From Onthophagus taurus (lineage: Eukaryota > Arthropoda > Insecta > Coleoptera > Scarabaeidae): DNA of 64,000 nt. The stretch spans positions 5,890,001 through 5,954,000 of the forward strand of contig NC_091973.1 of NCBI RefSeq assembly GCF_036711975.1. The letters run 5' to 3'. Of this stretch, positions 13,416 to 42,313 are shown one piece after another. The translations under genes were made by a program, and so were the position numbers. The notes beneath the pieces are model-generated. The model ran no database searches and was not told where the DNA came from. It saw nothing but the letters and a program-made list of their open reading frames with translations. Position 1 is the first letter of the stretch. Each line of letters starts with the position of its first letter.

Positions 13416-14921
13416 TTAAACGCCAACGTAACCATAAATTCGTCTTTCGGGATTCTTTTGGGTTTCCTCCACGTTGACGCCGGTGCTAACTTTTTCCGGA
13501 TAAGTACTTTGGGGAGATAGAAGAGGATTAGGTCGTAGATAAGCGGTTCCGAATTTAAACTTGAAAAGAACTATCGAAGGGGTAATTGTAGATAAAGAAA
13601 GATTACCTTGTCTTGGACCTGCGATGCTTTCTATGACATAACTTTCAGTTGATTTATTTTCCTGTAAATCATTTTCAATGTTATTATTATTATTAACAAG
13701 AAGGGTGTAATTACTCGCAATTGTTGGTTTATAATTTGTAACTGGTGAAGGAGTTGAATCAGAAACGCTTCTTTTGAAACGTATCATATTGTTAATATTA
13801 TGCCTCTTTCTTGATTTGGGCTCTAACGAATCTGTTGGGTTCGCCTTTACATCCAGGTCAAATAATTGTAATGGATGACTCAAACTGTCGGAAATTATAT
13901 CGCTATCTTCACTAATTGATTCGCTTATATTGGAAGTATTTTTAATTGAAGTGGTGTTAAAATGATCGATTGCCAAACTTATTACAGGAACTGGATTGGA
14001 AAAACCATGATCGGGAAGTGTTGGAATTTCCTCGATTTGAATAAATGGAAACGCTTCTTTAGTTTGGGCATCCGGTAAAGTTGGATTTATTGGCAACCCA
14101 ATTGGGATGTCGATCATCGATGGTGCTTCTTCAGTTTCTGGAAACTTAATCGCCATTAATAATTGTCTCGAACGTCTTGGAGGAGAATAATCTTCGATGT
14201 TGGATTGGTTAGATTGTTTAGGTTGGAGTACGATTTTAATTTTTAATGTACGATCACTAGGATTGATTGCATCAGAATTATCGCGATTCTCAAGTGGTGC
14301 TTCAGTTGAATTAGGGAAGATTTCATCTCCAACACAGCAATCAAGCAACTCTCCCGTTTTTTTTGTTGTTTTATCAACAGCCGTTGTAGAATTAAGTAAT
14401 TTATCTCCAAATAGTTGCGAAAATGTTACATTCATTTTTGGAACATCTATCAATCGAGCTTCTGAGATTGCATCTTCTTTTTCTATATTTACATCTGATT
14501 CTTCCAAATTTGCATCTTCTATGGTATCATCTGCTACCAACTCATCTTCTAATGACTCATCATCTAACGACGAATCTTCTAAAATAGTATCTTTTAATTT
14601 TGCATCTTTAAAATTTGGATCCTCCACCATATCATCATCTGAGAATGAATCAATTAAGATTGGTTCTCTACTTTTGGAGAAATAATCTGATGATCTTTTG
14701 TAACGTTCTTGTTCTGGATAAATTTCGTGTACTTTTCTGATAGTCTTGACGTTGGTGTAATCTTCTTGGACGGAGCGAACCCGGCGAACGAAACGTTCAA
14801 TTATCGATTCCCCATCATTAATATCCTCGTACGATATATTTGATGAATATTCGGAAACGTGGTGATAACCATGAGCCATTAAAAAGAATAAAAGGAGGAT
14901 GAACACGAAATTGTTACCCAT
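13416..14921 (-). CDS. Secreted acidic proprotein-like protein with pentapeptide repeats
   Basis: A 501-residue single-exon reading frame. The start has a clear signal peptide (hydrophobic FVFILLLFFLMAHG at residues 5-18). At about residues 99-145 a run of nine degenerate acidic pentapeptides follows the pattern D-x-x-(L/F/I/V)-(D/E/K). Five dibasic sites fit furin or prohormone-convertase cleavage: RRVR (about 45-48), RYKR, RRSR, SRKR and RFKR. Several N-glycosylation sequons occur in the middle third. Only the leader is clearly hydrophobic, so it is probably secreted and processed. I do not recognise the family. It could be a peptide precursor, an extracellular-matrix component or a cuticle-associated protein. 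A TATA box about 210 bp upstream and a GTGAGT donor at 15009-15014 suggest a short non-coding first exon spliced to an acceptor just upstream of the ATG (about 14950). Confidence 0.75.
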   Translation of the reverse strand: MGNNFVFILLLFFLMAHGYHHVSEYSSNISYEDINDGESIIERFVRRVRSVQEDYTNVKTIRKVHEIYPEQERYKRSSDYFSKSREPILIDSFSDDDMVEDPNFKDAKLKDTILEDSSLDDESLEDELVADDTIEDANLEESDVNIEKEDAISEARLIDVPKMNVTFSQLFGDKLLNSTTAVDKTTKKTGELLDCCVGDEIFPNSTEAPLENRDNSDAINPSDRTLKIKIVLQPKQSNQSNIEDYSPPRRSRQLLMAIKFPETEEAPSMIDIPIGLPINPTLPDAQTKEAFPFIQIEEIPTLPDHGFSNPVPVISLAIDHFNTTSIKNTSNISESISEDSDIISDSLSHPLQLFDLDVKANPTDSLEPKSRKRHNINNMIRFKRSVSDSTPSPVTNYKPTIASNYTLLVNNNNNIENDLQENKSTESYVIESIAGPRQGNLSLSTITPSIVLFKFKFGTAYLRPNPLLSPQSTYPEKVSTGVNVEETQKNPERRIYGYVGV

Positions 14922-15127
14922 GGTTGTTGAATCGAGGTCAAATTTTCCTATTTAAAAAAAGAAATTAAAAATTTAATAAAAAATGTAGTTAAAAATTTAT
15001 AAAATAATACTCACACGAATAATACGATCTTAGTTGATAATGATTAAAAATAAATTTAATTCACTATTAATCAAACAACTTTTTCAACAATTACTTCGCG
15101 AATGGTCAAAGGGAAATGAGCATTGTG

Positions 15128-15511: not shown

Positions 15512-16175
15512 ATGAGTTCGGACCCAACGAAAGACGAATGTTTTCCTTTGGCATACATTACCGATATGAAGAAGGTGTACAGGGAAGCAATTGAGATATT
15601 AAAAAAATCGCGTATAATTAGTGTTATTCCTGTCAACAATCCAGGGGACGTGATGATGAGTTTAGTGTACATGTGCACCGAAAAAGAAGTGTTCCTTTTC
15701 GATATATTAAGATTTGGACAGAATCAATTACCCAAAGAATTATACGATATCATCATGTGTGATAAAATACAAAAAGTTGTCTACACCCAAACAACGACGT
15801 CCGCTGCGTTGGGGCTTGATGACACTGTTAGTATTCCTAATGTGTATGATGTTGAAATTTATGCTGTAACATTACGACAAAAAATGATAGATCGAGTCAA
15901 TTATATTCGCGAAACTTACGGAATCGAGTTGATGCCAGAGAACTTTGAATTACCTATGTTAGAATATCTTCCTATGACAACACAACCAGTAAGTTATAAA
16001 CTAAATTAAAAACTTTTAAAATTAAAAAAAATTTATTTTTTAGCGTTTAGCGGACGTGGATTGGACCGTACGCCCTTTTCAAGCTAACGAACACTTCAAA
16101 ATTGCACAACACTTCTTCCAATTCATCTCATTATTTGAGCAAATGAAACGATCTGTAGGAGAACTCGCCGTTTAG
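15512..16175 (+). CDS. EXD1/Egalitarian-like degenerate exonuclease-fold protein A
   Basis: Two exons, 15512-15988 and 16044-16175, joined in phase 0 by a 55-base GTAAGT...TAG intron, give 202 residues. Residues 12-115 align by pattern with the 3'-5' exonuclease (DnaQ-like, RNase H fold) domain of EXD1 and Egalitarian: a helix KVYREAIEILKKS, strand ISVIPVN where active enzymes have hhxDxE, then LVYMCTEKEVFLFDIL, a helix ending KVVYTQT, and IPNVYDVE in place of the usual NVFDTQ. Exon 2 begins RLADVDWTVRPFQANEHF, like the W..RPL block of EXD1 proteins. None of the DEDD catalytic residues is in place, so I predict no nuclease activity. This is the most diverged member together with D. The family assignment is by eye and moderate; the gene structure is firm. 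Confidence 0.75.
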
Positions 16176-16875
16176 AACTTTAATATTATTAATATATATA
16201 AGATACTTAAATCATCATCTACCTCTACTTTATTAATCAAACATTAACACTTATTAATGTATTAAGTTATTTTTTTATCAAATAGGGCCGAAAACGTTCT
16301 TTTTATATCGCCGTATCAACACAACATTCTTTAACGAAATGCGATTACTAACGATAATTTTTTCTTTGAATTCACAGATAAAGCTTGCGAACAATCGAGC
16401 GGTAACTATAGACGAATAATGGAAATGATTCGTAAATTAATTAATGTTTAAGTTTAAATTTAAATTTCCCGCCTGTCAATAAGGTTGAAAATGTAATTAA
16501 CTTCATTATGCGCATATAACATGAAACGGCCCTAAATCAGAATTAATTAATAAGTGTTTATATAGGAAGAGTTGTGATTTATTTACAGAAATTTATTAAT
16601 AAAGGAAAATATTAGTGACATAACCTCAAATTATGAAAATAGAGCTTTATAAAGTATTTTAGAAGAATCAACAATAAAAGATTATTTAAGTTTATTTTTG
16701 TACGTTTTATAATAAAAAAGATTTTATAAAAAAATCTAATGTTTGATTTAAAAAACTTCTAAAAACATAACCTACAATTTTTTATGAATAAAACAATGAA
16801 CTATATAGAAACATTTATTATTTTATTCAAGATATTGTGTAACAAAAAAAAACTTATTAATTACAACTAACAAAT
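16176..16875. other. Intergenic DNA with an orphan copy of the cluster promoter block
   Basis: At 16463-16505 lies TTTCCCGCCTGTCAATAAGG followed by a TTGAAAATG phrase, the same block that sits about 105-125 bp upstream of genes C, F and G. No coding exon follows. Instead 16527-16620 (GGCCCTAA, then AGAGTTGTGATTTATTTACAG) resembles the reverse complement of the 3' flank of gene F at 24500-24650. I read this as a former paralogue whose body was deleted, leaving promoter and 3' flank. Confidence 0.5.
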
Positions 16876-17484
16876 TTATGGTTTATAATCAGTGAACTTC
16901 ATCGTCACTTCGTATACGCGATTACCAGCCTTGAATTGTTCATTTGCTTTAAATGGGCGTACCCTCCAATCAACTTCATCAATACGCTAAATAAAAGTAA
17001 TAAATTTAATAAGAATTTGTTATTAATTAATGTGGATTCTTACAAATTCCGTGCTTGAAGCACTTGCTTCATCTTCACCCCCTACATTTCCATTACCATA
17101 AGGTGAAAATTGTTCACCAGATGGTTCAATATCAAAAACGTTGGGAATATGACCCCAATTATCAAGACCCAACAAGGTAAAGGTAATTTGCTTGGAATAA
17201 ACAAATTTCTTCTTGCCAGATTCGATGATAGCCAACAACTCCTTTGTTATACCCTTTTCTTTAAGCATGATGAGGTCGAAAATAAACACGCTATCCCAGG
17301 TGCTCATATAAATTAAGCTTGGGACGTTTTTCGTTGAATCCACTTTGTCTATGTAATTTATTGGGACGACAAAAATCATATCTGCTTTGGTTAATTTCTT
17401 GATAGCGTCTGCGTAGATTTTCTTCTTGTTCCAAATGTACGCCATATTGGGTGGATTAATTTCAACAGCAATTGGGGCACTCAT
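16876..17484 (-). CDS. EXD1-like degenerate exonuclease-fold protein B
   Basis: Two exons, complement 17044-17484 and 16876-16986, phase 0, give 183 residues. Domain order: YIWNKKKIYADAIKKL helix (about 16-31), strand MIFVVPINYID in place of the DxE motif, LIYMSTWDSVFIFDLIML (about 56-73), a helix GITKELLAII, FVYSKQITFTLLGLDNW where active relatives have HDxRxD, and IPNVFDIE (about 112-119). A Gly/Ser/Glu-rich linker leads to exon 2 with RIDEVDWRVRPFKANEQF. Roughly nine in ten residues match protein E, an inverted duplicate 2.4 kb away. The start is the only Met before the helix. An 18-bp CTCF-like block (17541-17558) sits about 60 bp upstream. Confidence 0.8.
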
Positions 17485-17540
17485 CTTTTTTGCTAATTAA
17501 AAAACACACGATTGTTTGACGTTAAATATTACAAAATATT

Positions 17541-17558
17541 GACAGGCCCTCTGGTGGC
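17541..17558 (-). promoter_or_regulatory. CTCF-like 18-bp promoter block of gene B
   Basis: GACAGGCCCTCTGGTGGC, whose complement reads GCCACCAGAGGGCCTGTC. The CCACCAGAGGGC core matches the animal CTCF consensus. The same block occurs at 19622-19639 (gene D) and, with one change, at 19800-19817 (gene E), always 50-90 bp upstream of the ATG. It may simply mark common descent of the promoter. Confidence 0.5.
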
Positions 17559-17629
17559 GTAGAAGGGGTATTCTTCAAGTTGTCAATCGAAATTGTATAA
17601 TTAAAAAAAAACAATTATATTATTATTTA

Positions 17630-17662
17630 TTTATTTATTATTAATTAATTAATTAATTAATA
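17630..17662. repeat. TTTA/TTAA simple repeat
   Basis: A run of TTTA units passing into AATT units between the 3' ends of genes C and B promoter side. Confidence 0.7.
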
Positions 17663-17680
17663 ATTTCTAATAATGTATTA

Positions 17681-18266
17681 TTAACATAAACAAACTAAAA
17701 GACGATTCTTCATAGCTGACGTCATCAATCGCTGGATGCGATATCCAGCTAGGATTTGTTCATTTGCTTGAAAAGGGCGTACGCTCCAATCAACGTCCTC
17801 AATACGCTAAAAATTAAGAAAATATTAAAAACTTGAATAATTTTTATAAATGTTAATAACTTACAATTTCCACCATTGCATTGTCTCCAGTACAAAATGG
17901 CGAAAATTGCGGTCCAGTTCCTTCGATATCAAAGACGTTAACGAAATGATGCCAACTAGAATATCCCAAACGATTAAAAGTTGTACGTTTGGAATAAACG
18001 TATTTAACCATGTCCGAATAGAGAATTGCCAACAATTCTTGAGTTAATCCATTTTCTTGAAGCATGATTAGATCGAAAATAAACACGCTGTCCTTGGAGC
18101 ACACGTAAAGCAAACTTGGAACGGTCTTCGTGGGATCCATTTTGTTTGTGTAATTTATCGGAACGACATAAATCACGTCTGATACATGTATTTTCTTAAT
18201 AGCGTCCACGTAAATTTCACTCTTATTCCAGATGTAGGTGACGTTAATATCAACACCAGGAGTCAT
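17681..18266 (-). CDS. EXD1-like degenerate exonuclease-fold protein C
   Basis: Two exons, complement 17865-18266 and 17681-17806, phase 0, give 175 residues. The pattern matches the family: YIWNKSEIYVDAIKKI, VIYVVPINYTNKMD, LLYVCSKDSVFIFDLIML, then KYVYSKRTTFNRLGYSSW and FVNVFDIEGTGPQFSPF. Exon 2 begins RIEDVDWSVRPFQANEQI and ends in a family-specific MKNRLLVCLC tail shared only with protein G. Catalytic DxE and HxxxxD residues are absent. Its 400-bp upstream flank is an inverted copy of the flank of gene G, so the two arose by one inverted duplication including the promoter. Confidence 0.8.
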
Positions 18267-18387
18267 GGTTCTTTATGATTAGAAAACAAGCGACTACGAC
18301 CTTTACTTGAACAGTGCAAACACCAAGTGGCGAATCGACCAGTTTCACCGATCGATGAACGCTTCCGATGACTCTGCGTACTACGAA

Positions 18388-18426
18388 GTTAGTCGCATTT
18401 TCGACCTTATTGATGGGCGGGAAATT
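18388..18426 (-). promoter_or_regulatory. E2F-like promoter block of gene C
   Basis: On the minus strand this reads TTTCCCGCCCATCAATAAGG and then TCGAAAATGCG, about 122 bp upstream of the ATG. TTTCCCGCC fits the E2F/DP site. The block recurs upstream of genes F and G and as an orphan at 16463. Confidence 0.5.
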
Positions 18427-18758
18427 TAAATATTGAAAATATTTAAAGTATTTTAGTGTTGTGTTTTTACAATAAGACTCTTGTATTGTTTTTTAATACT
18501 TAATTTTTATAGAATATCACAAGAAATTGTTTTAATAATTATTTCTCGATTCCTATACTTTTATAGTTTCCTGTAATGCAGGATCATGTTAAATTTTTTA
18601 TTGTTGGTTGATTGCTTGATTTCAAAGCTAATATATAAAGTGAAGACGGGAAATTTAAACATTTAAAACGTTTTATTGCAACTTTATTTCTATAGAATAA
18701 TTCCTGTAATATAACAATAAACTGATTTTTTTTATTAATTCTTACAAAACAAAACATT

Positions 18759-19568
18759 TTAATGAAACGTTTCGGCCAATTTTGATAATCTTTTTGCTGC
18801 ATAAATATGTTCATTTCTTTCGAAAGGACGTTGAGCCCAATTTATGGAACTATACATCTTAAATAAAATTCATTTATGATTAAATAAATTGCATAATTGG
18901 AAAATACTTACTTCTGTAAGTAAGTCAACATCAAGGAGTGGGGAAAAAGGATTTTCAAGATTTTGATTGCTACTAATTATTTCGCGATAAGTAGGTTTGT
19001 TAGATATTAGTTTGTTACGTCTTTGATTTGGTTTATTATGTCTTGGGTTAAGTGGGTTATTAATTAATCGTTTACTGTTACTGTGCCTACGCCTACGTCG
19101 CCTACGACGGGTGTTATTTCTACGATTTCTGGATGGTTTTTCTCCCAATCGGCGGATATAATTTAGTATGGCATTATAAGCATCTGGGGGGCTAGTAGCA
19201 AGTGATTCAAATAAAAGTTCCATATCACAAACGTTACAGATATGTTTCCAACGATTAAGCCCCAACAAGTACAATGTTTTCTTTTTTGAAAACACCATTT
19301 TCCACTTATTCGACAAGATGAGTTTAGCTAATTCTTTCGGCAAATTTTTTACCTTAAATTTCAGAGTGTCGAAGATAAATATATCCTTCTTCGTCATGAT
19401 GTACACAAGACTAATAAACTTGCTCCTTCCAGTGCGACAAGTAATCGGTATAACGTAGATCTTCTTAGCAGTCTTCAACATTGCTATCGCTTTGTAATAC
19501 ATCTTCCCCATTTTGTAAATATAGACAATTTTGAACTTACTTTCTTGATTTTGCTGAAATTGATCCAT
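18759..19568 (-). CDS. EXD1-like degenerate exonuclease-fold protein D with Arg-rich insert
   Basis: Two exons, complement 18912-19568 and 18759-18857, phase 0, give 251 residues, the longest in the family. The core follows the family order: IYKMGKMYYKAIAMLKTAKK, IYVIPITCRTG, LVYIMTKKDIFIFDTLKF, then MVFSKKKTLYLLGLNRW and ICNVCDMELLF (so VCDM replaces VFDI). Between the core and exon 2 it carries an insert of roughly 70 residues very rich in Arg, Asn and Lys (about 145-190), including eight Arg in a row, which could bind nucleic acid or act as a nuclear signal. Exon 2 reads MYSSINWAQRPFERNEHI. It stands head-to-head with gene E, 319 bp apart. No catalytic residues are kept. Confidence 0.75.
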
Positions 19569-19621
19569 TTTTATGTATTTTTGAGAACAAGTAATGACAA
19601 CAAAATGCGCGTTTTAAGTAT

Positions 19622-19639
19622 GACAGGCCCTCTGGTGGC
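19622..19639 (-). promoter_or_regulatory. CTCF-like 18-bp promoter block of gene D
   Basis: Identical to the block at 17541-17558, here 54-71 bp upstream of the gene D ATG. With the copy at 19800-19817 it forms a convergent pair inside the bidirectional D/E promoter. Confidence 0.5.
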
Positions 19640-19799
19640 AAATAACAATCAACAATGTGGCAATTGAGAAAAATATTTTATTTTTATTTAAATGTTTAAG
19701 CTAAAATTAATTATACGAAATTATTTTAATAATACATAAATTTTAATAAGATATTTTAATTTGATTTCATTTGATTAATTTAATTAAAATTTTAGTTTC

Positions 19800-19817
19800 G
19801 CCACTAGAGGGCCTGTC
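19800..19817 (+). promoter_or_regulatory. CTCF-like promoter block of gene E
   Basis: GCCACTAGAGGGCCTGTC on the plus strand, 71-88 bp upstream of the gene E ATG. It differs from the other two copies at one base. Confidence 0.5.
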
Positions 19818-19887
19818 AACACAAAGCAGCCATATTGTTATAGTGTAATTAGCATAAAACTCGCCCGTTTTTTAATTAGCAAGAAAG

Positions 19888-20508
19888 ATGAGTGCCCCAA
19901 TTGCTGTTAAAATTGATCCACCCAACATGTCGTACATTTGGAACAAGAAAAAAATTTACGCAGATGCTCTCAAGAAATTAAATAAAGCAGATATGATTTT
20001 TGTCGTCCCAATAAACTACATAGACAAAGTGGATTCAACGAAAAACGTACCAAGCTTAATTTATATGAGCACCTGGGATAGCGTGTTTATTTTCGACCTC
20101 ATCATGCTTAAAGAAAAGGGTATAACAAAGGAGTTGTTGGATATCATCAAATCCGGCAAAAAGAAATTTGTTTTTTCCAAGCAAATTACTTTTACCTTGT
20201 TGGGTCTTGATAATTGGGATGTCATTCCAAACGTTTTTGATATTGAATCTTCTGGAGAACAATTTTCACCTTACGGTAATGGAACTGTAGGGGGTGAAGG
20301 TGAAGCAGGTACTTCAAGCACGGAATTTGTAAGATTTCACATTAATTAATAACAAATTCTTATTAAATTTGTGTTAAATTTATTACTTTTTATTTAGTGT
20401 ATTGCTGAAGTTGATTGGAGAGTACGCCCATTTAAAGAAAATGAACATTTCAAGGCTGGTAATCGCGTATACGAAGTGATGATGATGTTTACTGATTATA
20501 AACTATAA
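19888..20508 (+). CDS. EXD1-like degenerate exonuclease-fold protein E
   Basis: Two exons, 19888-20328 and 20398-20508, phase 0, give 183 residues. The core is nearly the same as protein B: YIWNKKKIYADALKKL, MIFVVPINYID, LIYMSTWDSVFIFDLIML, FVFSKQITFTLLGLDNW, IPNVFDIE, then a Gly/Glu/Ser linker and exon 2 with CIAEVDWRVRPFKENEHF and an EVMMMFTDYKL tail. Near-identity to B in coding and intron sequence marks recent inverted duplication. The last coding part and exon 2 were copied again 1132 bp downstream (21423-21640). Confidence 0.8.
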
Positions 20509-20666
20509 ATTTGTTATTTATAATTAATAACTTACCTTTTGATGTTTTTGTGTTAGATGATATCTTTAATATAATAATACATGTTTGCATACAGTTAAAT
20601 GTTTTATTTATAAAAACTTATCTTTGGGAAAGAAAACTAAAATAAATATAACTACTTAGTTGATTG

Positions 20667-21421
20667 TTATTCTCTTAAACAACAAATTTCACGAAATGAT
20701 GATATTTGTGGCAATGATGCAAAGTTATTTACATCACAGCTACGATGGTCTACTACAAGGTCGCTTGAGCACGAGGTGCTGCAATTGATACCACATAGAC
20801 ACAACATCTTCAGTACCTTTTTTGGAATAATAACATTCACATAAATCCAATAATTGTTAATTTTCTGTGGTGTAAGAAATGAACTAAAAGATTGCCAAAG
20901 GTGGCCGTGATCAGTGGATAATAAGCAGGTTCTAAAACAGGGAAAAATCCGGAGCGAACTTACACATACTTTCTTAAACAGGCTACACTTTGGCATTGAA
21001 ATGATACCTCAGAGCAACTGAAGCACGGGCAAAACGCTGACCATCTACACTGATGGATCAAAGGAGGCTAGATCTCCTGCTACAACTCTCCACTTTGTCG
21101 TACTGCATGACTGCTCAGGCTGAAATAACTGCTATAATTATAGCAGCCAATAAGATCATCGACTCCAAAAAACTTGGCAGAAACGTTGTAATCTGCACAG
21201 ATAGCAGATAGGCTATGCTGACGGTTAGTAGGCATCGAACTACATCATCGTTAGTGAAGTCCTGTCGGCAATCACTTGAGGAGGCTAACGTTTATAACAA
21301 CGTCACGATAAAGTGACGGAAAGGACATACCGAAATAAGACACGATCATACGGACAGGTTGACTCCATCTCTATCTCCCATCGAGGTGTTTGCGATAGAT
21401 GATGTTGTAGGTGTCGTGTAT
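20667..21421 (+). repeat. LINE RNase H fragment, duplicate copy 1
   Basis: Plus-strand pieces: FLNRLHFGIE and KTLTIYTDGSK (about 20970-21062), a TAQAEITAIIIAANKIIDSKK helix (21110-21170), ICTDSR (about 21190-21210), then SCRQSLEEANVYNNVT (about 21260-21310) and KGHTEIRHDHTDRL (about 21325-21365). This is an RNase H domain with the usual TDGS, E, DS and GH motifs of I-like LINEs, broken by frame changes. It ends abruptly at the tandem-duplication junction near 21421. Confidence 0.75.
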
Positions 21422-21422
21422 G

Positions 21423-21640
21423 GGGGTGAAGGTGAAGCAGGTACTTCAAGCACGGAATTTGTAAGATTTCACATTAATTAATAACAAATTCTTATTAAAT
21501 TTGTGTTAAATTTATTACTTTTTATTTAGTGTATTGCTGAAGTTGATTGGAGAGTACGCCCATTTAAAGAAAATGAACATTTCAAGGCTGGTAATCGCGT
21601 ATACGAAGTGATGATGATGTTTACTGATTATAAACTATAA
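21423..21640 (+). pseudogene. Truncated duplicate of gene E: end of exon 1, intron, exon 2
   Basis: From 21423 the sequence repeats 20291 onward at an offset of 1132 bp with almost no change. It includes the Gly/Glu linker of exon 1, the GTAAGA donor, the intron and all of exon 2 (21530-21640). No first part of exon 1 is present, so it cannot make the core domain alone. It could act as an alternative terminal exon of gene E by skipping. Confidence 0.85.
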
Positions 21641-22720
21641 ATTTGTTATTTATAATTAATAAGTTACCTTTTGATGTTTTTGTGTTAGATGATATCTTTA
21701 ATATAATAATAAATGTTTGCATAAAGTTAAATGTTTTATTTATAAAAACTTATCTTTGGGAAAGAAAACTAAAATAAATATAACTACTTGATTGTTATTC
21801 TCTTAAACAACAAATTTCACGAAATGGTGATATTTGTGGCAATGATGCAAAGTTATTTACATCACAGCTACGATGGACTACTACAAGGTTGCTTGGGCAC
21901 GAGGTGCTACAATTGATACCATATAGACACAACATCTTCAGTACCTTTTTTGGAATAATAACATTCACATAAATCAAATAATTCTTAATTTTCTGTGGTG
22001 TAAGAAATGAACTAAAAGATTGCCAAAGGTGGCCGTGATGGCGTTGCTTTGATTGCGATCAGAGGATAATAAGCAGCTTCTAAAACAGGGAAAAATCCGG
22101 AGCGAACTTACACCTACTTTCTTAACCAGGCTACACTTTGGCATTGAAACGATACCTCAGAGTAACTTAAGTACGGGCAAAACGCTGACCATCTACACTG
22201 ATGGATCAAAGAAGACTAGATCTCCTGCTACAACTCTCCACTTTGCTAGGGTCGTACTGCACGACTGCTCAAGCTGAAATAACTGCTATAATTATAGCAG
22301 CCAATATGATCATTGACTCCAAAAAAGTTGACAGAACAGTTGTAATCTGCACAGATAGCAGACAGGCTATGCTGGCGGTTAGTAGCAATCACTTGAGGAG
22401 GCTAACGTTTATAGCAACGTCACGATAAAGTGGCGGAAAGGACATACCGAAATAAGACACAATCATACGGACAGGTTGCCTCCATCTCTATCTCCCATCG
22501 AGGTTTTTGCGATAGATGGTGTAATAGATGTCTTTGCAAAGAAACCTATACTCCACCCTGACCGGAACAAATCTACTCATTTCCTGGGAAAATCAAAAAG
22601 TGACTTGAAGCTCCTCACCCACTTCCTGACCGGACACTCCACGTTACGTGAGTACATGTTCTACATTAAGTTGGCAAATGCATCCCTCTGTAGAGCGTGT
22701 GTAATATTGACAATAATATT
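21641..22720 (+). repeat. LINE RNase H fragment, duplicate copy 2, longer
   Basis: It repeats the RNase H region of copy 1 (TIYTDGSKKT near 22190, ITAIIIAANMIIDSKK near 22280, ICTDSRQAMLAV near 22345) and continues beyond the duplicated part. There it gives KPILHPDRNKSTHF, LLTHFLTGHSTLREYMF and ASLCRACV (to about 22700), the C-terminal Cys block of this LINE type. Copy 2 is the original context, because it extends past the duplication end near 22540. It has lost about 50 bp around 22385 that copy 1 keeps. Confidence 0.75.
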
Positions 22721-22839
22721 GACAATACCTTAGCATATTGACAATAATATTGACCGTATAAGGTGAAAAGTTTTATTGACGGTAAATATTGATGGAGTAT
22801 TGATAGAAATCCGAATTTTCTGATTTTCTTCGTAATTTT

Positions 22840-24160
22840 ATGGAACAATACGAAGTATCTCCAAAGGTGTGGAATCCGACCAACCCAATGTATTCCAACA
22901 AAGCGGAAAGAAATTCATCTGTTGACCGCCTCATATCCTTTTTAATGAGAATAAACCAACAAAAGAAAGGATGTCAAAAAAAAGATAAACAGTCTTCGAA
23001 CATATTATAGAAAAGAATTGAAGAAAATTGCCGCATCAAAGAGGTCGGGAAACAGTACAGATGAACATTACACACCTTCCTCATAGGTGTTTTTTGCTAT
23101 GTCCTTTCTTGGGAGGTTCGAGAAACTATTACAGCAGCAGCCGACTAAATCCATTTGTTCGCACAGTAACCTATTTTTAGTTACTCCATTTCACTGTGGT
23201 TCTATTATCTACACATCTATACCCACTATCTTCTACATGATTTCCCCACTATATTGTAGGTGACAGCTTTAAAAGAAATTCCAAAGCAGTAAGTATTAAT
23301 TATTTCAAAAAATTAAGTCACATAGTATACAGTTTTAAAAGAAGTCAACATTAAATGAGGCTTTCAGTATTTTCCTTCATTGTTATAATAATGACAAAAT
23401 TTGTGCCTTGGCAACTGTAGAACTGTTTCTTTGAAAAGTACTTTGTAACAAATTATCCACATCTCTACCTCGATCATTTGAGGTGAGGTATAACAACAGG
23501 CAAGAGTAACCATTGTAGCTTTTGGTGGCTGTAGATTGATAGGTTTTTGGAACACACGAAACCATGAACTCAATATCCCGAATGCATTCTCTACAAATAC
23601 TCGAGCGCGTGACAACCTTTCATTGAATATTTGTAGAGGTGTATTCAGCAATCTTTGAGAGTAAGGTTTCAATAAATTGTTATGTAATTCAATTGCCTTG
23701 TCAGCAACAAATACATATGGGAAAAGATCAGTTGTTTTCGGCAATGGTGCCAAAAGTACGATGCAGCAAAATCCTTTGTAATTGTAATACAAGGCTATAT
23801 GTTTCCTGTGTACCTTATTGTAAAACGTTATTTCAGGAATTGGAGCAACAAGAGAACAAGAAATAGGTGAATACGTTCAACGGACTTCTGCCACAGCATC
23901 AACATCTTCAATGCTTCCCCCCAAATGCATTACCTCAAACTCATCAAACCAAAAGATTGAAATCGCTCGGTCCGGTTTCGAAGCAAAATTTACTTTTGCA
24001 AAAAGCATGTTCACTTTTGGAAACCTCATCGAACCCTGATAGCAACTTTCCAACAATTGCAAAAGCTTGGGGAGGAAAATTGCTGACATTAGATTCCACA
24101 CAACGAGCTTTTGCAGAGAAAGCAATAAATGACATCGTTTTTGAGGCAAGCTGATGAAGA
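22840..24160. repeat. PIF/Harbinger remnant: MADF-type protein and transposase pieces
   Basis: Plus strand 22841-23110 encodes a decayed MADF-domain N-terminus (MEQYEVSPKVWNPTNPMY..., then INSLRTYYRKELKKIAASK). Plus strand 23960-24155 encodes its C-terminal part with LDSTQRAFAEKAINDIVFEAS, as in Harbinger accessory proteins. Between them, on the minus strand 23792-23364, lies the C-terminal part of a DDE_Tnp_4 transposase: VFVADKAIELHNNLLKPYS, NERLSRARVFVENAFGIL and a final VTLACCY. Stops and frame changes are present in all parts. The transposase lies antisense between the two MADF pieces, so the element is rearranged or nested. Terminal inverted repeats were not found. Confidence 0.75.
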
Positions 24161-24621
24161 CTACCGCATGATTAAAACCTTGGGCTGGTTTTCTGATCTA
24201 AGTGCTGTGAAGGAATTCACCCCCACGTGAAGCTACATACATACAAGGGTAAGAATTACCTCTTCAAGTTGGATTATCAATCAAGGATCAATTAATTATC
24301 ATTTATAACTAAATGGAGGATATGTTTTAGATGTTGGAATTAAGTTAGATTAAAATTATATTTTATTTATAAGAAATTAAGTATTTATTTATTATTAAAC
24401 GTACAAAACAATTTTAAACATAATTACAACTTTAAGTAATCTTTTATTATTGACATGATTGATTCTCAAAAATACTTTAAGGTACATTATCGTAATTTAA
24501 GGTTATATTACCAACATTTTTTTTATCATTAAATTTCTGTAAATAAATCACAACTCTTCTTATAGAAACACTTACTATCTAAATATGAAACTACAAAAAA
24601 AAACTATCAAAAAACATCAAT
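24161..24621. other. Intergenic AT-rich DNA
   Basis: No gene seen. The stretch 24500-24600 is the 3' flank of gene F and matches, inverted, the orphan flank at 16527-16620. Confidence 0.5.
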
Positions 24622-25239
24622 TTATTCTGTTTTGGGGCCGTATGAATTAACGATGAGCAATTGATATATGCGTTTTCCAGCCTTAAAATGTTCGTCAGAT
24701 TTAAACGGACGCACGCTCCAATCGACGTCAGCAATACGCTAAAAATTAAAAATTAAGAAAATGAGGTAAACATAAATTAAAATACATTCAAGACTTACAA
24801 ACTCGGTACTTGGGGCACTTGCACCAGCTTCCTCTTGGTTGCCATCATCATCAAATGGGGAGAATTTTTCTCCTGAAGCTTCAAAATCTAAAACGTTCGG
24901 TATGTTATGCCAATTATCAATTCCCAAACGATTAAAGGTTATAGGTTTGGAGAAGACGAATTTTATTTTGTTCGATTTGATAATATCCGACATCTCCTTC
25001 GTTATTCCGTTTTCTTTAAGCGCGATTAGGTCGAAAATGAAAATGCTATCAACGCTGCACAAGTAAACCAAGCTAGGGGTCGTTTTCGTAGCATCCATTT
25101 TGTCTATCGAATTTATTGGGACGACCAAAAGCGAATCCGACCTGTTTAATTTCTTGATCGCATCCGCGTAAAGCTTTTTCTTGTTCCAAATGTACGTCAT
25201 GTTGGGTGGAGTATCTTTATAAGCAGCAAGAGCACTCAT
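24622..25239 (-). CDS. EXD1-like degenerate exonuclease-fold protein F
   Basis: Two exons, complement 24799-25239 and 24622-24738, phase 0, give 185 residues. Order: YIWNKKKLYADAIKKLNRSD, LLVVPINSIDKMD, LVYLCSVDSIFIFDLIAL, a helix GITKEMSDII, FVFSKPITFNRLGIDNW, IPNVLDFEASGEKFSPF and an acidic linker. Exon 2 reads RIADVDWSVRPFKSDEHF and ends KRIYQLLIVNSYGPKTE. It keeps the family signature but again lacks DEDD residues (PIN in place of DxE). It faces gene G head-to-head with 595 bp between starts, and each promoter carries an E2F-like block. Confidence 0.8.
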
Positions 25240-25342
25240 CTTTTCTTTTTGATTATTAAGAAACCGTGTTTTGTTGAAAGAAACACTAAACGACTTTCGA
25301 CAATGTCAACACACGATGAACAATGAACGGGGAGGTTGCGCA

Positions 25343-25386
25343 TAGTGAAGTTAGTTACATTTTCGACCTTATTGACAGGCGGAAAA
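25343..25386 (-). promoter_or_regulatory. E2F-like promoter block of gene F
   Basis: Minus strand TTTTCCGCCTGTCAATAAGG then TCGAAAATGTAAC, about 104 bp upstream of the ATG of gene F. It differs from the strict TTTCCCGCC form by one base. Confidence 0.45.
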
Positions 25387-25681
25387 TTTAAATGTTAAAA
25401 ATATTTTATTGCTTCAATATTCTTTTTAATTTATTATTTAAATTCTGTTAACATCCTCTTCACTTTATATATTAGCTTTGAAATCGAGGAAATAAAAAAT
25501 TTAACATGATGATCCTGTATTACAGGAAACTGTAAAAGTATGGGAATCTAGAAATAATCCGCTTTTAACCTATTAAAACAATTTCTCGTGATATTCTATA
25601 AAAATGAAGTATTAAAAACCAATGTAAGCGTCTTATTGTAAAAACACAATACTAAAATACTTTAAATACTTTCAATGTTTA

Positions 25682-25722
25682 AATTTCCCGCCCATCAATA
25701 AGGTCGAAAATGCGACTAACTT
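25682..25722 (+). promoter_or_regulatory. E2F-like promoter block of gene G
   Basis: TTTCCCGCCCATCAATAAGG then TCGAAAATGCG, about 113 bp upstream of the ATG of gene G, in the same relative position as in genes C and F. Confidence 0.5.
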
Positions 25723-25834
25723 CGTAGTACGCATAGTCGTTGGCCAACGTTCATCGATCGGTGAAATTGGTCAATTGGTGTTTGTACCACTCGAGAGTAG
25801 TTCGTAATCGTTTGTTTTCTAATCATAAAGAAAT

Positions 25835-26418
25835 ATGAGTCCTCCTGTTACTGTTAAGATGAGCTATATTTGGAAGAAGAGAAAAATGTACACGGACGCT
25901 ATTAAGAAGATATATAGAGCAAATTTGATTTATATCGTTCCGTTAAGTTATAGAAACAAGATGGATCCGACGAAGATAGTTCCAAGTTTGGTTTATATAT
26001 GCACCAGCGACAGCGTGTTTATTTTCGATCTAATCATGCTTAAAGAAAATGGATTAACCAAAGAATTGGTGGATATTTTATATTCGCGCATGGTTAAATA
26101 CGTTTACTGCAAACGGACCACCTTTAATCTCTTGGGATATAATTGTTGGCATGGTTTCCTTAATGTTTTCGATATCTCAGGTGCTGGACCTCAATTTTCA
26201 CCATTTTGTAATGACGTTCATCAAAATAAAATTGGTGAAATTGTAAGTTATTAATATTTTTAAAACTCTTTTATTATTTTCTTCATTTTTAGCGTATTGA
26301 GGACATTGATTGGAGCGTACGCCCTTTTAAATCAGAGGAACAAATTCAAGCTGGATATCGTATCCAGCGATTGATGACGTCAGCTATGAAGAATCGTCTT
26401 TTAGTCTGTTTATGTTAA
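25835..26418 (+). CDS. EXD1-like degenerate exonuclease-fold protein G
   Basis: Two exons, 25835-26242 and 26293-26418, phase 0, give 177 residues. Order: YIWKKRKMYTDAIKKIY, LIYIVPLSYRNKMD, LVYICTSDSVFIFDLIML, then KYVYCKRTTFNLLGYNCW and FLNVFDISGAGPQFSPF. Exon 2 is RIEDIDWSVRPFKSEEQI with the same C-terminal tail as protein C. It is the partner of C in an inverted duplication 7.6 kb apart that includes the upstream flank (25440-25830 against 18270-18660). The catalytic positions are replaced as in all members. Confidence 0.8.
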
Positions 26419-26542: not shown

Positions 26543-29380
26543 TACAGGTGTCCAAATAAGCTTGCAAAGTACTGTATCTCGAAAACTTTGAAAAATGTTG
26601 GTTGTTTCGAAATTTCACTGTATTAACATTACAAAAGAATATATGCCATTTAAAGTTGAAATAAATTATAGTTTTTTTTGCTAAAACACCTTTTGCCTTA
26701 TCTCTAAAAATAAAGCGGTGGGGGTGTTCGAAAATGTTTGTAAACAAATGCTAATAATTTAAAAATGGCTAAACGGATTTTAATAATCTTGGTATCGGTG
26801 AAAAGCAAAATGAAGCCCAAACAAGCTAGTGAAAACCGCGCCTCGATATCACGTTCCTAACCTAAAATATCGGTGAAAGAAGATTTTGTGAGAAAATTTA
26901 ATGATTTTGATGTTTTTTTTAAATTTTTTAAACTGCCTTAGTTTAGAAGATACTTCACCTCACTTTTGAGAGCATTTCTCATTGTATTATTTTTTAGTCC
27001 ACGCTTATTTGACCATCCTGTACATATAATAAATATTTAAAACAAACATCGTGCAAAGTACTGTATCTCGGAAACTCTGAATTGAAAAATGTTACTTTTT
27101 TCGGAATTTCACTGTATTAACACTACAAAAGAATATATGCCATTTAAAGTTGAAATAAATTAGTTTTTTTGTTAAAACACTTTTTGCCTTATCTATAAGA
27201 ATAAAGTGGTGGGGGTGTTCGAAAATGTTTGTAAACAAATGCTAATAATTTAAAAATGGCGAAACGGATTTTAATAATCTTGGTATCGTTGAAAAGCAAA
27301 ATGAAGCCCAAACAAGCTAGTGAAAACCGCGTCTCGATGTCATGTTCCTAACCTAAAATATCGGTGAAAGAAGATTTTGTGAGAAAATTCAATGATTTTG
27401 ATATTTTTTTAAAATTTTTTAAACTGCCTTAGTTTAGAAGATACTTCACCTCACTTTTGGGAGCATTTCTCATTGTATTGTTTTTTAGTCCATGCTTATT
27501 TGGCCATCCTATACATATAATAAATATTTAAAACAAACATCGTGCAAAGTACTGTATCTCGGAAACTTTGAATTGAAAAATGTTTTTTTTTCGAAATTTC
27601 ACTGTATTAACACTACAAAAGAATATATGCCATTTAAAGTTGAAATAAATTATAGGTTTTTTGTTAAAACACTTTTTGCCTTTTCTCTAAAAATAAAGCG
27701 ATGGGGGTGTTCGAAAATGTTTGTAAACAAATGCTAATAATTTAAAAATGGCTAAACGGATTTTAATAATCTTGGTATCGTTGAAAAGCAAAATGAAGCC
27801 CAAACAAGCTAGTGAAAACCGCACCGCGATGTCATGTTCCTAACCTAAAATATCGGTGAAAGAAGATTTTGTGAGAAAATTCAATGATTTTGATGTTTTT
27901 TTTTAAATTTTTTAAACTGCCTTAGTTTAGAAGATACTTCACCTCACTTTTGGGAGCATTTCTCATTGTATTGTTTTTTAGTCCACGCTTATTTGGCCAT
28001 CCTGTACATATAATAAATATTTAAAACAAACATCGTGCAAAGTACTGTATCTCGGAAACTTTGAATTGAATAATGTTGTTTTTTTTTAAATTTCATTGTA
28101 TTAACACTACAAAATAATATATGCCATTTAAAGTTGAAATAAATTATAGTTTTTTTGTTAAAACACTTTTTGCCTTATCTCTAAAAATAAAGCGGTGGGG
28201 GTGTTCGAAAATGTTTGTAAACAAATGTTAATAATTTAAAAATGGCTAAACGGATTTTAATAATCTTGGTATCGTTGAAAAGCAAAATGAAGCCCAAACA
28301 AGCTAGTGAAAACCGCACCGCGATGTCATGTTCCTAACCTAAAATATCGGTGAAAGAAGATTTTGTGAGAAAATTCAATGATTTTGATGTTTTTTTTTAA
28401 ATTTTTTAAACTGCCTTAGTTTAGAAGATACTTCACCTCACTTTTGGGAGCATTTCTCATTGTATTGTTTTTTAGTCCACGCTTATTTGGCCATCCGATA
28501 CATATAATAAATATTTAAAACAAACATCGTGCAAAGTACTGTATCTCGGAAACTTTGAATTGAAAAATGTTGTTTTTTTTTAAATTTCATTGTATTAAGA
28601 CTACAAAAGAATATATGCCATTTAAAGTTGAAATAAATTATAGTTTTTTTGTTAAAACACTTTTTGCCTTATCTCTAAAAATAAAGCGGTGGGGGTGTTC
28701 GAAAATGTTTGTAAACAAATGCTAATAATTTAAAAATGGCTAAACGGATTTTAATAATCTTGGCATCGTTGAAAAGCAAAATGAAGCCCAAACAAGCTAG
28801 TGAAAACCGCGTCTCGATGTCATGTTCCTAACCTAAAATATCGGTGAAAGAAGATTTTGTGAGAAAATTCAATGATTTTGATATTTTTTTAAAATTTTTT
28901 AAACTGCCTTAGTTTAGAAGATACTTCACCTCACTTTTGGGAGCATTTCTCATTGTATTGTTTTTTAGTCCACGCTTATTTGGCCATCCTATACATATAA
29001 TAAATATTTAAAACAAACATCGTGCAAAGTACTGTATCTCGGAAACTCTGAATTGAAAAATGTTACTTTTTTCGGAATTTCACTGTATTAATACTACAAA
29101 AAAATATATGCCATTTAAAGTTGAAATAAATTAGTTTTTTTGTTAAAATACTTTTTGCCTTATCTATAAAAATAAGGTGGTGGGGGTGTTCGAAAATGTT
29201 TTTAAACAAATGCTAATAATTTAAAAATGGCTAAACGGATTTTAATAATCTTGGTATCGTTGAAAAGCAAAATGAAGCCCAAACAAGCTAGTGAAAACCG
29301 CGCCTCGATATCATATTCCTAACCTAAAATATCGGTGAAAGAAGATTTTGTGAGAAAATTCAATGGTTTTGATCAGATTT
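26543..29380. repeat. Tandem array, about six units of about 491 bp, from a TIR element
   Basis: The phrase GCAAAGTACTGTATCTCG recurs at 26564, 27053, 27544, 28037, 28531 and 29024, a period of 489-494 bp. Each full unit ends with GCTTATTTGGCCATCCTGTA (or a close variant). The very first unit begins with TACAGGTGTCCAAATAAGC, the approximate inverse of that end, so the unit looks like a non-autonomous DNA element with inverted ends, amplified in tandem. The last unit is cut off near 29375. Units differ at only a few per cent of sites. No unit has a coding frame. Confidence 0.85.
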
Positions 29381-29966
29381 TTTTTAAATTTTCAACGCGA
29401 TCAAACTTAATGTGAAATCGCCTGGTTAACCCATTAGATGAAGCTGTTTATTAGATTGAGCACCTTCTTAAATATGGAGATACAAATCATTTAAGAAATT
29501 CTGGAGCTAAAATGGTGTGGTACAAATATTTTCTTATAGATGTAATTTTTTGTGTGTACATTATCTTAAAAAAAATTTGTGTCCAAGTTATTTCAAATGA
29601 CTGATTTATTAAACTTTAAGAAGAAGATTTAAGGTCGTCTTGTTCTAGTTCTGTAAATGTACTATACAATTATACAATGAAGTTATCGCGTAAGTTGATT
29701 ATCACTCATTAGATGTTTAACATCAATGCCCCCACCTTAATTCTCCACTCATAATAGCCCACATTATATCACAGTTTCAATTGTGGTTTATTTGTGTTTT
29801 TGGCTTTGTACTCTACGGTTTAAAAAAAATTAAATAAAAATGAAGGGAATTTTCAATGTGTTTAAATTTATAGGTATCGTATCTTTTTATTGCTACTAAT
29901 AAAAGTTATGATACAAATACCTTAAGTTTGCTCGAAAATATTTAGAATTCAAGTAACATTCCAAAA
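29381..29966. promoter_or_regulatory. 5' flank of the dipeptidase gene
   Basis: AT-rich DNA with no recognised gene. It must hold the promoter of the dipeptidase gene. A short run near 29745-29790 (TCCACTCATAATAGCCCAC) is the only less AT-rich part. I see no firm TATA box. Confidence 0.3.
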
Positions 29967-32900: not shown

Positions 32901-33821
32901 AGTACTAAAACTAACACTAGACCAAGAACTAGAAACATTTGGATTTAGCCGCACGTCTCTCAAGACGGCTAAACTCGAATGATTCTAGTTCTAGGTCTTG
33001 TGTTAGTTCTAGTTTTAGTTCAATAAAAATATGCAACATAGTGATATCTTATGTTAACTAGAAACATTAAGACATGTTGCATTTTATGTGTGCCTTGGTT
33101 TTTATGGAAATATATTTTTGTATATTGTATTTTAAGTAAAATTTACTGTATTTTTTATGTTTATAGAAAGATAACAAAGGAATTATTATGGTTAACTTTT
33201 ATAGCGGCTTTGTTCATGGAAAACCAAGAGAAGCAACTATTGACCATGTAGCAAGTAAGTAAAAAAACTTTATTTATCCCTCAATTTAGAGATCGGTATA
33301 TACAAAGGTTTTCCATTTGGACACTCTGGGTATATTTTCTTCTTAGAGAAGATATCGATCTCCAAATTGTGGGAATTTTTGTTAAATTTTTCACACAATC
33401 ATTTTTTTTAATAGATCATATTAATCACATTGTTGATGTGATTGGGCATGATTATGTTGGGGTTGGAGGTGATTACGATGGAGTATCTTTGTAAGTTAAC
33501 CACAAATTTGTTATTTTTACAATTTTAACAATCTATTCTAGAATGCCAACTGGTTTAGAAGATGTTTCAAAATATCCAGATTTATTTAAATACCTCCAAA
33601 ACAATAACCCTGAAAGATGGACGAATGAAAATATTAAGAAACTGTCGAGCGATAACTTTTTGCGAGTTTTCAAAGAAGTTGAAAAGGTGAGGGATGAATT
33701 AATTAATGAAGAACCTCATCAACATTGGATACCTGTGGAAGATTTGGATGCAGTTAATGATGACATCTTATGGAAATGTCGTACTTTAACCAATAATGTT
33801 AGTCCCTCGATGATTGCATAA
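29967..33821 (+). CDS. Membrane dipeptidase (renal-dipeptidase family)
   Basis: Seven exons: 29967-30000, 30229-30364, 30566-30728, 30775-31296, 33167-33254, 33415-33490 and 33542-33821, all with GT/AG ends and matching phases, give 432 residues. The enzyme hydrolyses dipeptides with a two-zinc centre (M19 metallopeptidases). All metal ligands are visible: GHNDLP (His58, Asp60), IGVEGGHS (Glu about 173), VDLSHVS (His about 243), FSHSSSW (His about 264) and the GGDYDGV motif in exon 6. The LTHSCNTPW block and GLEDVSKYPDL are also present. A signal peptide occupies about residues 1-24. The C-terminus lacks the hydrophobic tail expected of a GPI-anchor signal, so the protein may be secreted. Intron 4 is swollen to 1.9 kb by a hairpin array. 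A polyadenylation signal lies near 33864. Confidence 0.92.
31325..33062. repeat. Intronic hairpin array 1, about 13 units
   Basis: About 13 units of 125-135 bp lie inside intron 4 of the dipeptidase gene. Each unit alternates two palindromes: a core of about 44 bp (TCGGGTTTAGCCGCACGTCT ... AGACGGCTAAACCCGAAT) and an A/T-rich one (TCTAGTTCTAGGTCTTGTGT and its inverse) of about 80 bp. In units near 32047, 32435, 32560 and 32690 the core is inverted relative to its neighbours. The array ends in TTTTAGTTCAATAAAAATAT and then ATCTTATGTTAACTAG, a flank shared with the start of array 2. Confidence 0.9.
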
Positions 33822-37727: not shown

Positions 37728-37800
37728 GTCCCTGTGGCGCAGAGGATAGCGCGTTGGACTTCTAATCCAAAGGTCGTGGGTTCGATCCCCGCCAGGGATG
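37728..37800 (+). tRNA. tRNA-Arg (anticodon TCT)
   Basis: A full 73-nt cloverleaf without intron. The acceptor stem GTCCCTG pairs with CAGGGAT (G-T at the end) and the discriminator is G. The anticodon stem TTGGA/TCCAA encloses CTTCTAA with TCT at 37761-37763, and GGTTCGATCCC is the B box. A T6 run at 37811-37816 can end Pol III transcription. It lies antisense in the 5' part of the acetyltransferase gene, 51 bp beyond its acceptor, so it is probably intronic to that gene. Confidence 0.96.
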
Positions 37801-42150: not shown

Positions 42151-42313
42151 TAATTTTTAACAAGTTTTGTTAATAACATTTTTCATTTTTAATTTCCCTC
42201 TGAACAGTACGTGTGAAATAGAAAAAGTTATAATCAATATTATTAATTTTATTAAAAACAAATTTTTACATAACCAAAACCTTACTAAAAACATATCACA
42301 AATTCTATAAAAT

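What the first reader, a model, noticed from the sequence alone, without database searches (positions are those of the whole stretch)
15512..26418. Clustered family of seven small EXD1/Egalitarian-like proteins without catalytic residues
Seen: seven genes (15512, 17484, 18266, 19568, 19888, 25239 and 25835 starts) each have one long exon, one short exon, a phase-0 intron and the same order of motifs, including (V/I)F(I/L)FD, NVFDIE-like and DW.(V/Q)RPF blocks. Known: in EXD1 and Egalitarian the 3'-5' exonuclease fold contains LFD and NVFDTQ blocks followed by W..RPL, and human EXD1 is inactive and works in piRNA biogenesis. Inference: this is a lineage-specific expansion of pseudo-exonucleases, perhaps RNA-binding adaptors in germline silencing or a defence arms race. 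I know of no description of such a compact cluster.
Basis: partly seen in the sequence, partly recalled or inferred. Interest (0 to 1): 0.85.

Follow-up and report, generated by a model that had tools for sequence, protein, structure and literature searches.

The report
Cluster of seven dead exonuclease-like genes
An insect-like stretch of DNA carries seven small related genes whose proteins appear to have the shape of an RNA-trimming enzyme of the EXD1 kind but lack the acidic residues needed for cutting, so they probably act as structural partners rather than enzymes.

Summary
In detail: seven two-exon paralogues (A-G) at 15512-26418, each with one phase-0 intron and one motif order, plus a truncated eighth (21422-21637). 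No Pfam exonuclease model matches, but four tests point to the DEDD 3'-5' exonuclease fold: family profile against PDB sequences (Bombyx EXD1 first, E 0.0023; reversed control 0.36), hhalign to EXD1/Egalitarian fragments (E 2.3e-6; reversed 0.41), and two AlphaFold models whose best Foldseek hits are Nibbler (3.0e-5) and EXD1 (1.2e-6). At the mapped catalytic positions 0 of 28 residues are acidic. The genes are intact and the two closest pairs show purifying selection, which does not favour an arms race. The piRNA or RNA-adaptor role is untested and partly argued against: five of seven proteins have pI below 6.5, and Egalitarian's RNA-contact segment is not conserved. B, D and E share a 19-bp CTCF-like upstream element; C, F and G share another. 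Best reading: a local expansion of EXD1-descended pseudo-exonucleases acting as non-catalytic partners. Species, expression and function are unknown.

The parts
15512..16175 (+). Gene A, 202 aa; exons 15512-15988 and 16044-16175
   Evidence: Spliced ORF; best Foldseek hit of its exon-1 model is EXD1 5fis_A, E 1.2e-6
16876..17484 (-). Gene B, 183 aa; exons 17484-17044 and 16986-16876
   Evidence: Spliced ORF, 88% identical to E; CTCF-like core starts 73 bp upstream of the ATG
17681..18266 (-). Gene C, 175 aa; exons 18266-17865 and 17806-17681
   Evidence: Spliced ORF, 71% identical to G
18759..19568 (-). Gene D, 251 aa; exons 19568-18912 and 18857-18759; Arg-rich insert; reads YAAKR where RNase D reads YAAAD
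   Evidence: Spliced ORF; pI 10.5; motif table
19888..20508 (+). Gene E, 183 aa; exons 19888-20328 and 20398-20508
   Evidence: Spliced ORF
21422..21637 (+). Truncated eighth copy: end of exon 1, intron and exon 2 of E, in a 1.1-kb tandem duplication
   Evidence: Direct repeats D5-D7, D10, D12; tblastn of E and HMM hit 6.1e-15
24622..25239 (-). Gene F, 185 aa; exons 25239-24799 and 24738-24622
   Evidence: Spliced ORF; structure model
25835..26418 (+). Gene G, 177 aa; exons 25835-26242 and 26293-26418
   Evidence: Spliced ORF; pI 9.4
17540..17558 (-). 19-bp CTCF-like upstream element of B (GCCACCAGAGGGCCTGTCA)
   Evidence: 3 sites in 64 kb with up to 3 mismatches, 0 in 100 shuffles
19621..19639 (-). 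Same element upstream of D, 19 of 19 identical to B's
19800..19818 (+). Same element upstream of E, one mismatch
18404..18427 (-). Second-class upstream element of C
   Evidence: 4 sites in 64 kb with up to 3 mismatches, 0 in 100 shuffles
25366..25389 (-). Second-class upstream element of F
25681..25704 (+). Second-class upstream element of G
16462..16485 (+). Orphan copy of the second-class element with no family gene downstream
   Evidence: the nearby 16537-16608 matches F's 3' flank (I14), so probably a relic of a lost copy (inference)

Best explanation
The seven genes are a local expansion of catalytically dead DEDD 3'-5' exonuclease-fold proteins that descend from the EXD1/Egalitarian branch. 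Shown here by computation: the likely fold, the nearest relatives, absence of acidic residues at the mapped catalytic positions, intact genes, and purifying selection on the two closest pairs. Inferred: the proteins do not cut RNA and work as small non-catalytic partner (scaffold or dimerisation) modules, because the sheet core and the DW.VRPF/motif-III helix are conserved while the segment between them, which in Egalitarian carries RNA contacts, is not. Inferred with less certainty: they bind or modulate complexes that use EXD1- or Egl-like proteins, for example in germline RNA handling. Six of the seven genes carry one of two kinds of upstream element, and the copies have been reshuffled by duplication and conversion-like exchange. 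My confidence in the fold and dead active site alone is about 0.9; in the partner role about 0.5; in any germline link about 0.35.
For: Family profile vs PDB sequences: Bombyx EXD1 5fiq/5fis best, E 0.0023 and 0.0030; reversed-sequence control best 0.36. hhalign vs EXD1 plus Egl fragments: E 2.3e-6, Prob 89, 103 columns colinear from the N-terminal helix to NVFD.E; reversed control 0.41. Exon 2 aligns with E. coli RNase D motif III DWLARPL..YAAAD (weak: P 0.055, Prob 1%; reversed control P 0.17 at another place). AlphaFold models with Foldseek: 31 hits at E <= 0.001 for F, 85 for A exon 1; by my recalled classing 49 of the 50 listed for F and 48 of the 50 listed for A are DEDD exonucleases, exosome chains taken to be Rrp6, or polymerases with such a domain; the other rows have titles that do not tell. 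Motif table: motif I D->V/I and E->I/V/L, motif II D->T in 7 of 7, motif III D->R in 6 and H in 1. Fisher tests for fewer replacement than silent changes: B/E P 0.0007, C/G P 0.015.
Against: No Pfam exonuclease hit for any of 7 at E <= 10 (the one hit is PI3Ka for D at 0.046), although a Bombyx EXD1 fragment and E. coli RNase D do hit PF01612. phmmer with D alone finds no exonuclease at E <= 10; with A alone EXD1 is best but at 0.1. HCN1 channels score 0.0071-0.022 with the family profile, so 0.0023 alone would not convince. Mean pLDDT is 66 in both models; query TM-scores of the listed rows are 0.27-0.56. The F model holds 20 intron-coded residues, so its helix at 148-170 is largely artefact. 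No control model (reversed or unrelated) was folded. No expression, partner or RNA-binding data; the partner role is inferred from what is conserved.
Confidence: 0.5

Rival explanations
1. RNA-binding adaptors in piRNA biogenesis or mRNA localisation: dead exonuclease domains that hold RNA for TDRD12/PIWI- or BicD-like machinery.
For: Nearest relative is EXD1, which works with MIWI2 and TDRD12 in piRNA biogenesis (passage of PMC12497819). In Egl the exonuclease-homology domain contacts RNA while its putative catalytic residues are dispensable (PMC13186709, section 7). D (pI 10.5) and G (pI 9.4) are basic, and the motif III Asp became Arg in 6 of 7.
Against: A, B, C, E and F have pI 4.9-6.2. 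Egl's contact residues K657, K659, R686, R687 lie after its VFDTQ block, where this family is not conserved. Egl's other RNA-binding domains do not fit in 175-251 aa.
Confidence: 0.25
2. Correct fold but another branch of DEDD exonucleases (Nibbler, EXD2 or RNase D type), not EXD1/Egl.
For: Best Foldseek hit of the F model is Nibbler, 3.0e-5, with EXD1 at rank 8; the A model hits EXD2 almost as well as EXD1 (2.3e-6 against 1.2e-6). Egl was not among the PDB profile hits at E <= 10.
Against: Sequence tests put EXD1 first and the hhalign match extends over the N-terminal helix; EXD1 is first for the A model.
Confidence: 0.15
3. A defence or conflict family in an arms race (against transposons, viruses or a drive element).
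For: Tandem and inverted copies, transposon-like insertions, and faster divergence of exon 1 than of the flanks in C/G.
Against: dN/dS is 0.18-0.54 in the 19 of 21 computable pairs. The excess divergence in C/G exon 1 is also at silent sites (dS 0.40), so exchange explains it without selection. Selection at a few sites is not excluded.
Confidence: 0.1
4. Domesticated from a retroelement or virus: DEDDy ORFs are known as extra ORFs in bdelloid rotifer LTR retrotransposons.
For: Precedent in PMC5408684 (abstract and passages seen); a DDE-transposase fragment lies inside the cluster.
Against: Each gene has its own conserved intron and six of seven an upstream element; no relative confirmed among 228 pattern matches in viral contigs. 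Non-viral transposon libraries were not searched.
Confidence: 0.05
5. A decaying array of non-functional copies.
For: One truncated copy (21422-21637) and one orphan upstream element (16462-16485).
Against: 14 of 14 exons of the seven genes are open and splice sites kept; Fisher P 0.0007 and 0.015 for purifying selection in the two closest pairs.
Confidence: 0.05

Closest known systems
EXD1 (piRNA biogenesis; Bombyx EXD1 structures 5fiq, 5fis, species recalled)
   Same: DEDD fold, degenerate active site (S-G-D at motif I, L at motif II in the solved chain against Egl D-C-E and D), the N-terminal helix before strand 1, FD and VFD blocks
   Different: Family proteins are short and single-domain by length, do not match PF01612, and come as a cluster of seven. 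EXD1's Sm-like domain (recalled) has no room here.
Egalitarian exonuclease-homology domain (Drosophila; 9rvy-9rw7)
   Same: Fold; catalytic residues not needed for RNA binding; VFD block
   Different: Egl has three further N-terminal domains (ED1-3) and an adjacent helical domain, which do not fit here; the RNA-contact segment is not conserved.
Nibbler, EXD2, RNase D, Rrp6 (DEDDy nucleases)
   Same: Fold; W..RP(L/F) followed by a helix; gene D reads YAAKR where RNase D reads YAAAD
   Different: All four catalytic acidic positions are non-acidic in all seven members
Maelstrom and Exuperantia (other dead exonuclease-fold proteins of the germline; Maelstrom from PMC5408684, Exuperantia recalled)
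   Same: Exonuclease folds reused without catalysis
   Different: Relationship not tested here

Membership tests
DEDD 3'-5' exonuclease fold | Core order strand-strand-strand-helix-strand-helix-strand | tested here: met
   Models of F and A exon 1 (last strand only 2-3 residues); Foldseek best E 3.0e-5 and 1.2e-6. Moderate confidence models.
DEDD 3'-5' exonuclease (active enzymes) | Four catalytic acidic residues D, E, D, D | tested here: not met
   0 of 28 (4 positions x 7 proteins) acidic (mapping), so it is not filed as an active nuclease
Pfam PF01612 | Score above the curated cut-off | tested here: not met
   No hit for 7 of 7 at E <= 10; EXD1 fragment and RNase D hit
EXD1 | Closer sequence relation to EXD1 than to other DEDD proteins | tested here: inconclusive
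   EXD1 is the best PDB profile hit, 0.0023, and hhalign with EXD1+Egl gives 2.3e-6, but one of two models prefers Nibbler and no tree with insect orthologues could be made
EXD1 | Additional Sm-like domain and a complete exonuclease domain (recalled) | tested here: not met
   175-251 aa, exonuclease-like core from about residue 13; the part after NVFD.E is not conserved and has pLDDT under 50 in the F model
EXD1 | TDRD12/PIWI association and germline role | not testable with these tools
   No expression or interaction data
Egalitarian | ED1-3, exonuclease-homology domain and adjacent helical domain | tested here: not met
   Only the exonuclease-like part fits the length

The most novel reading that the evidence does not exclude
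A repertoire of interchangeable pseudo-exonuclease subunits with promoter-proximal CTCF-like elements. The copies are chosen through two classes of upstream element, some copies of which share the core GCCTGTCAAYA (four exact sites in 64 kb, all in the cluster), are refreshed by conversion-like exchange of segments, and act as decoy or alternative partners that tune an EXD1- or Egl-dependent RNA complex. This would be a diversified non-catalytic toolkit derived from a piRNA or mRNA-transport factor.
Probability: 0.12. Interest if true: 0.75.

Novelty: new variant of a known kind. Interest (0 to 1): 0.5.

Why it matters
EXD1 and Egalitarian are normally thought of as single genes (recalled). 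A compact cluster in which the dead exonuclease-like domain stands alone, has multiplied and stays under constraint would show that this fold can be a free-standing non-catalytic module, and gives seven natural variants for testing which part of the fold binds partners and which binds RNA. The ten paper searches in the held library listed no paper on such a cluster; I saw only their top rows (one search had none), and the library lacks most subscription journals.

Tried and rejected
Whole-genome search: no genome held, so copies elsewhere, a parent EXD1 gene and the species stay unknown. Pfam, PHROGs and NCBIfam: only isolated weak hits to unrelated families (best 0.046 PI3Ka, 0.0067 a PHROG of unknown function, 0.002 an MBL hydrolase model for one member). 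Viral relatives of the family: 228 pattern matches, none confirmed; of the transposase fragment: 7, none confirmed. E2F-like sites (TTTSSCGC): 6 in the window against 6.9 expected, rejected as a signal. The 19-bp element (18 bases of it) in viral contigs: none. Positive selection as the cause of C/G exon-1 divergence: not needed, because silent sites diverge as well. Deletion of the middle of the domain: the stretch from NVFD.E to W is 34 residues in B and 35 in RNase D, shorter in C and G, so for B, E and F it is replacement rather than loss. YN00 estimates failed for most pairs, so NG86 is used; two NG86 pairs (B/D, D/E) gave no value.
Full report
What was checked. The window looks insect-like: exons of a 7tm_7 chemosensory receptor, an M19 dipeptidase, a short-chain dehydrogenase and an acyl-CoA dehydrogenase lie downstream. 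No whole genome is held, so the species is not known. All seven genes are present at the stated starts: A 15512-15988 and 16044-16175 (+); B 17484-17044 and 16986-16876 (-); C 18266-17865 and 17806-17681 (-); D 19568-18912 and 18857-18759 (-); E 19888-20328 and 20398-20508 (+); F 25239-24799 and 24738-24622 (-); G 25835-26242 and 26293-26418 (+). Every intron is phase 0, 50-69 bp, with a GTAAG donor. A family HMM over all stop-to-stop fragments of 15 aa or more finds these 14 exons and one more, the exon-2 copy of E within 21422-21637, all at E 1.2e-10 or better, and the next at about 1. This is far beyond chance. Transcription was not tested.

Is it under selection? The 19 computable NG86 pairs of 21 give dN/dS of 0.18-0.54, though many have dS above 1 and are saturated. 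For the two closest pairs the deficit of replacement changes is significant: B/E Fisher P 0.0007, C/G P 0.015 (from the counts). In exon 2 of B/E the ratio is 0.81 on few changes. So the genes are constrained overall and probably functional; this is not the profile of a gene-wide arms race, but it does not rule out positive selection at a few sites.

How the cluster evolves. A protein tree joins A with D on long branches, against F, (B,E) and (C,G) (the tool warns that the places of A and D are unsure). C and G are odd: in 60-bp windows their 5' flanks from about -386 to -131 are 90-97% identical and the stretch from 402 on (end of exon 1, intron, exon 2) 88-97%, but exon 1 is 73-90%. Silent divergence is dS 0.40 in exon 1 and 0.125 in exon 2. 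Over a longer 324-column flank alignment mismatches are 41 of 324 (12.7%), and exon-1 silent differences exceed this (Fisher P 0.0002; approximate, as the two measures are not the same kind). Because silent sites are affected, exchange of segments between copies is the simplest reading (inference). The 1.1-kb tandem duplication at 20290-22532 and the inverted copies B/E (515 nt, 92%) and C/G (448 nt, 80%) show repeated duplication.

What the proteins are. Pfam finds no exonuclease, while an EXD1 fragment and E. coli RNase D hit PF01612 in the same library; the family has drifted beyond that model. A profile of the seven proteins against PDB sequences has EXD1 first (E 0.0023, 0.0030), then HCN1 channels (0.0071-0.022, presumably chance), then T. 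brucei RNase D (0.043, 0.058) and RepB (0.12). The profile of reversed proteins reaches only 0.36. A alone finds EXD1 first, at 0.1; D alone finds no exonuclease at E <= 10. hhalign of the family against an alignment of EXD1 and Egalitarian fragments gives E 2.3e-6 and Prob 89 over 103 columns; the reversed family gives 0.41. These hhalign E-values are for one pairwise comparison, not for a database.

Structure. Its best Foldseek hit in the PDB is Aedes Nibbler (3.0e-5); Rrp6, RNase D, EXD1 (rank 8), EXD2, Egalitarian and WRN follow. I class 49 of the 50 listed rows as this fold (exosome chains taken as Rrp6, polymerases by their exonuclease domain; recalled); 1vk0 is titled only as an Arabidopsis gene product. 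A model of A's exon 1 alone, free of intron residues, has mean pLDDT 66 and pTM 0.61; its best hit is EXD1 5fis_A, E 1.2e-6, then EXD2, 2.3e-6; 48 of 50 listed rows class likewise and two (5zo3) are titled only 'nuclease'. Query TM-scores of the listed rows are 0.27-0.56, modest, and no control model was folded.

Active site. From the EXD1/Egl alignments, motif I D-x-E (Egl D-C-E, EXD1 S-G-D) reads [VI]-P-[IVL] here, and the motif II Asp (Egl D, EXD1 L) reads Thr in 7 of 7. From the RNase D alignment of exon 2 (P 0.055, Prob 1%, weak; the reversed control gives P 0.17 elsewhere), motif III Tyr reads K, K, L, Y, K, K, Q and Asp reads R, H, R, R, R, R, R in the order B, A, C, D, E, F, G. None of the 28 mapped positions (four acidic sites, seven proteins) is acidic. 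Gene D reads YAAKR where RNase D reads YAAAD, which supports descent from a DEDDy enzyme. That these columns are the catalytic ones is recalled knowledge of RNase D and Egl.

Working mechanism. In Egalitarian the exonuclease-homology domain touches RNA through two positive clusters (K657, K659, R686, R687 were mutated and binding fell), while its putative catalytic residues lie about 15 A from the RNA and are dispensable (PMC13186709: section 7 read; passages). Egl's VFDTQ block is at chain positions 636-640 (numbering may be off by a few from the paper's), so the contacts lie in the segment that follows it. In this family that segment is not conserved: it is a short or low-complexity stretch by eye in B, C, E, F and G, with pLDDT under 50 from 120 to 156 in the F model; A has a low-confidence helix there; D has an Arg-rich insert and was not modelled. 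Five proteins have pI 4.9-6.2, D 10.5 and G 9.4. So RNA binding in the Egl manner seems unlikely for most members, and I prefer a partner or scaffold role of the conserved core and the DW.VRPF helix. This is inference; D and G may differ.

Upstream elements. B, D and E carry GCCACCAGAGGGCCTGTCA (E with one mismatch), the 12-bp core starting 70-87 bp before the ATG in the same orientation. The core fits the CTCF consensus CCASYAGRKGGC (recalled); these are the only 3 sites in 64 kb, with 0.01 expected. B and D share 19 of 19 bases although their proteins are 34% identical. C, F and G share AAATTT(C/T)CCGCC..TCAATAAGGT 127-161 bp before the ATG, with an orphan fourth copy at 16462-16485. B, E, F and the orphan copy contain GCCTGTCAAYA exactly; C, D and G do not. 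A has neither element. C, F and G elements may simply be inherited by duplication. Whether CTCF binds is untested.

Verdict. The role is open. I rate it a new variant of a known kind: dead exonuclease-fold proteins are known, and a stand-alone, multi-copy, diverged EXD1-like cluster was not seen in the paper listings searched.

Noticed in passing
window 26563-29392: Tandem array of about 5.7 copies of a 494-bp unit, 95% matches, directly after gene G.
   Followed up: no
window 31325-33011 and 35072-36547: Two arrays with similar units of about 121-131 bp holding CTAGTTCTAG-like stretches and a GGGTTTAGCCG...CGGCTAAACCC palindrome (by eye); the first lies between two M19 dipeptidase exons (30775-31323 and 33495-33818).
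   Followed up: no
window 40187-42151: Array of 152/301-bp units, 92-93% matches.
   Followed up: no
window 23364-23876, minus strand: DDE_Tnp_4 transposase fragment (PIF/Harbinger type, recalled) between genes E and F, E 1.7e-8; no viral relative confirmed.
   Followed up: partly
window 20290-22532: 1.1-kb tandem duplication carrying E's exon 2; ORFs at 22053-22730 look like RNase H of a non-LTR retroelement by eye, but the one tested (22386-22730) has no Pfam hit.
   Followed up: partly
window 60873-61958, minus strand: Reverse transcriptase (RVT_1, E 2.7e-10) of a retroelement.
   Followed up: no
window 37728-37800: One tRNA gene, the only Rfam match at gathering threshold in the window.
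   Followed up: no
window 13416-14951, minus strand: 511-aa stop-to-stop open frame with an apparent signal peptide and acidic repeats (by eye), no Pfam match at E <= 0.01.
   Followed up: no
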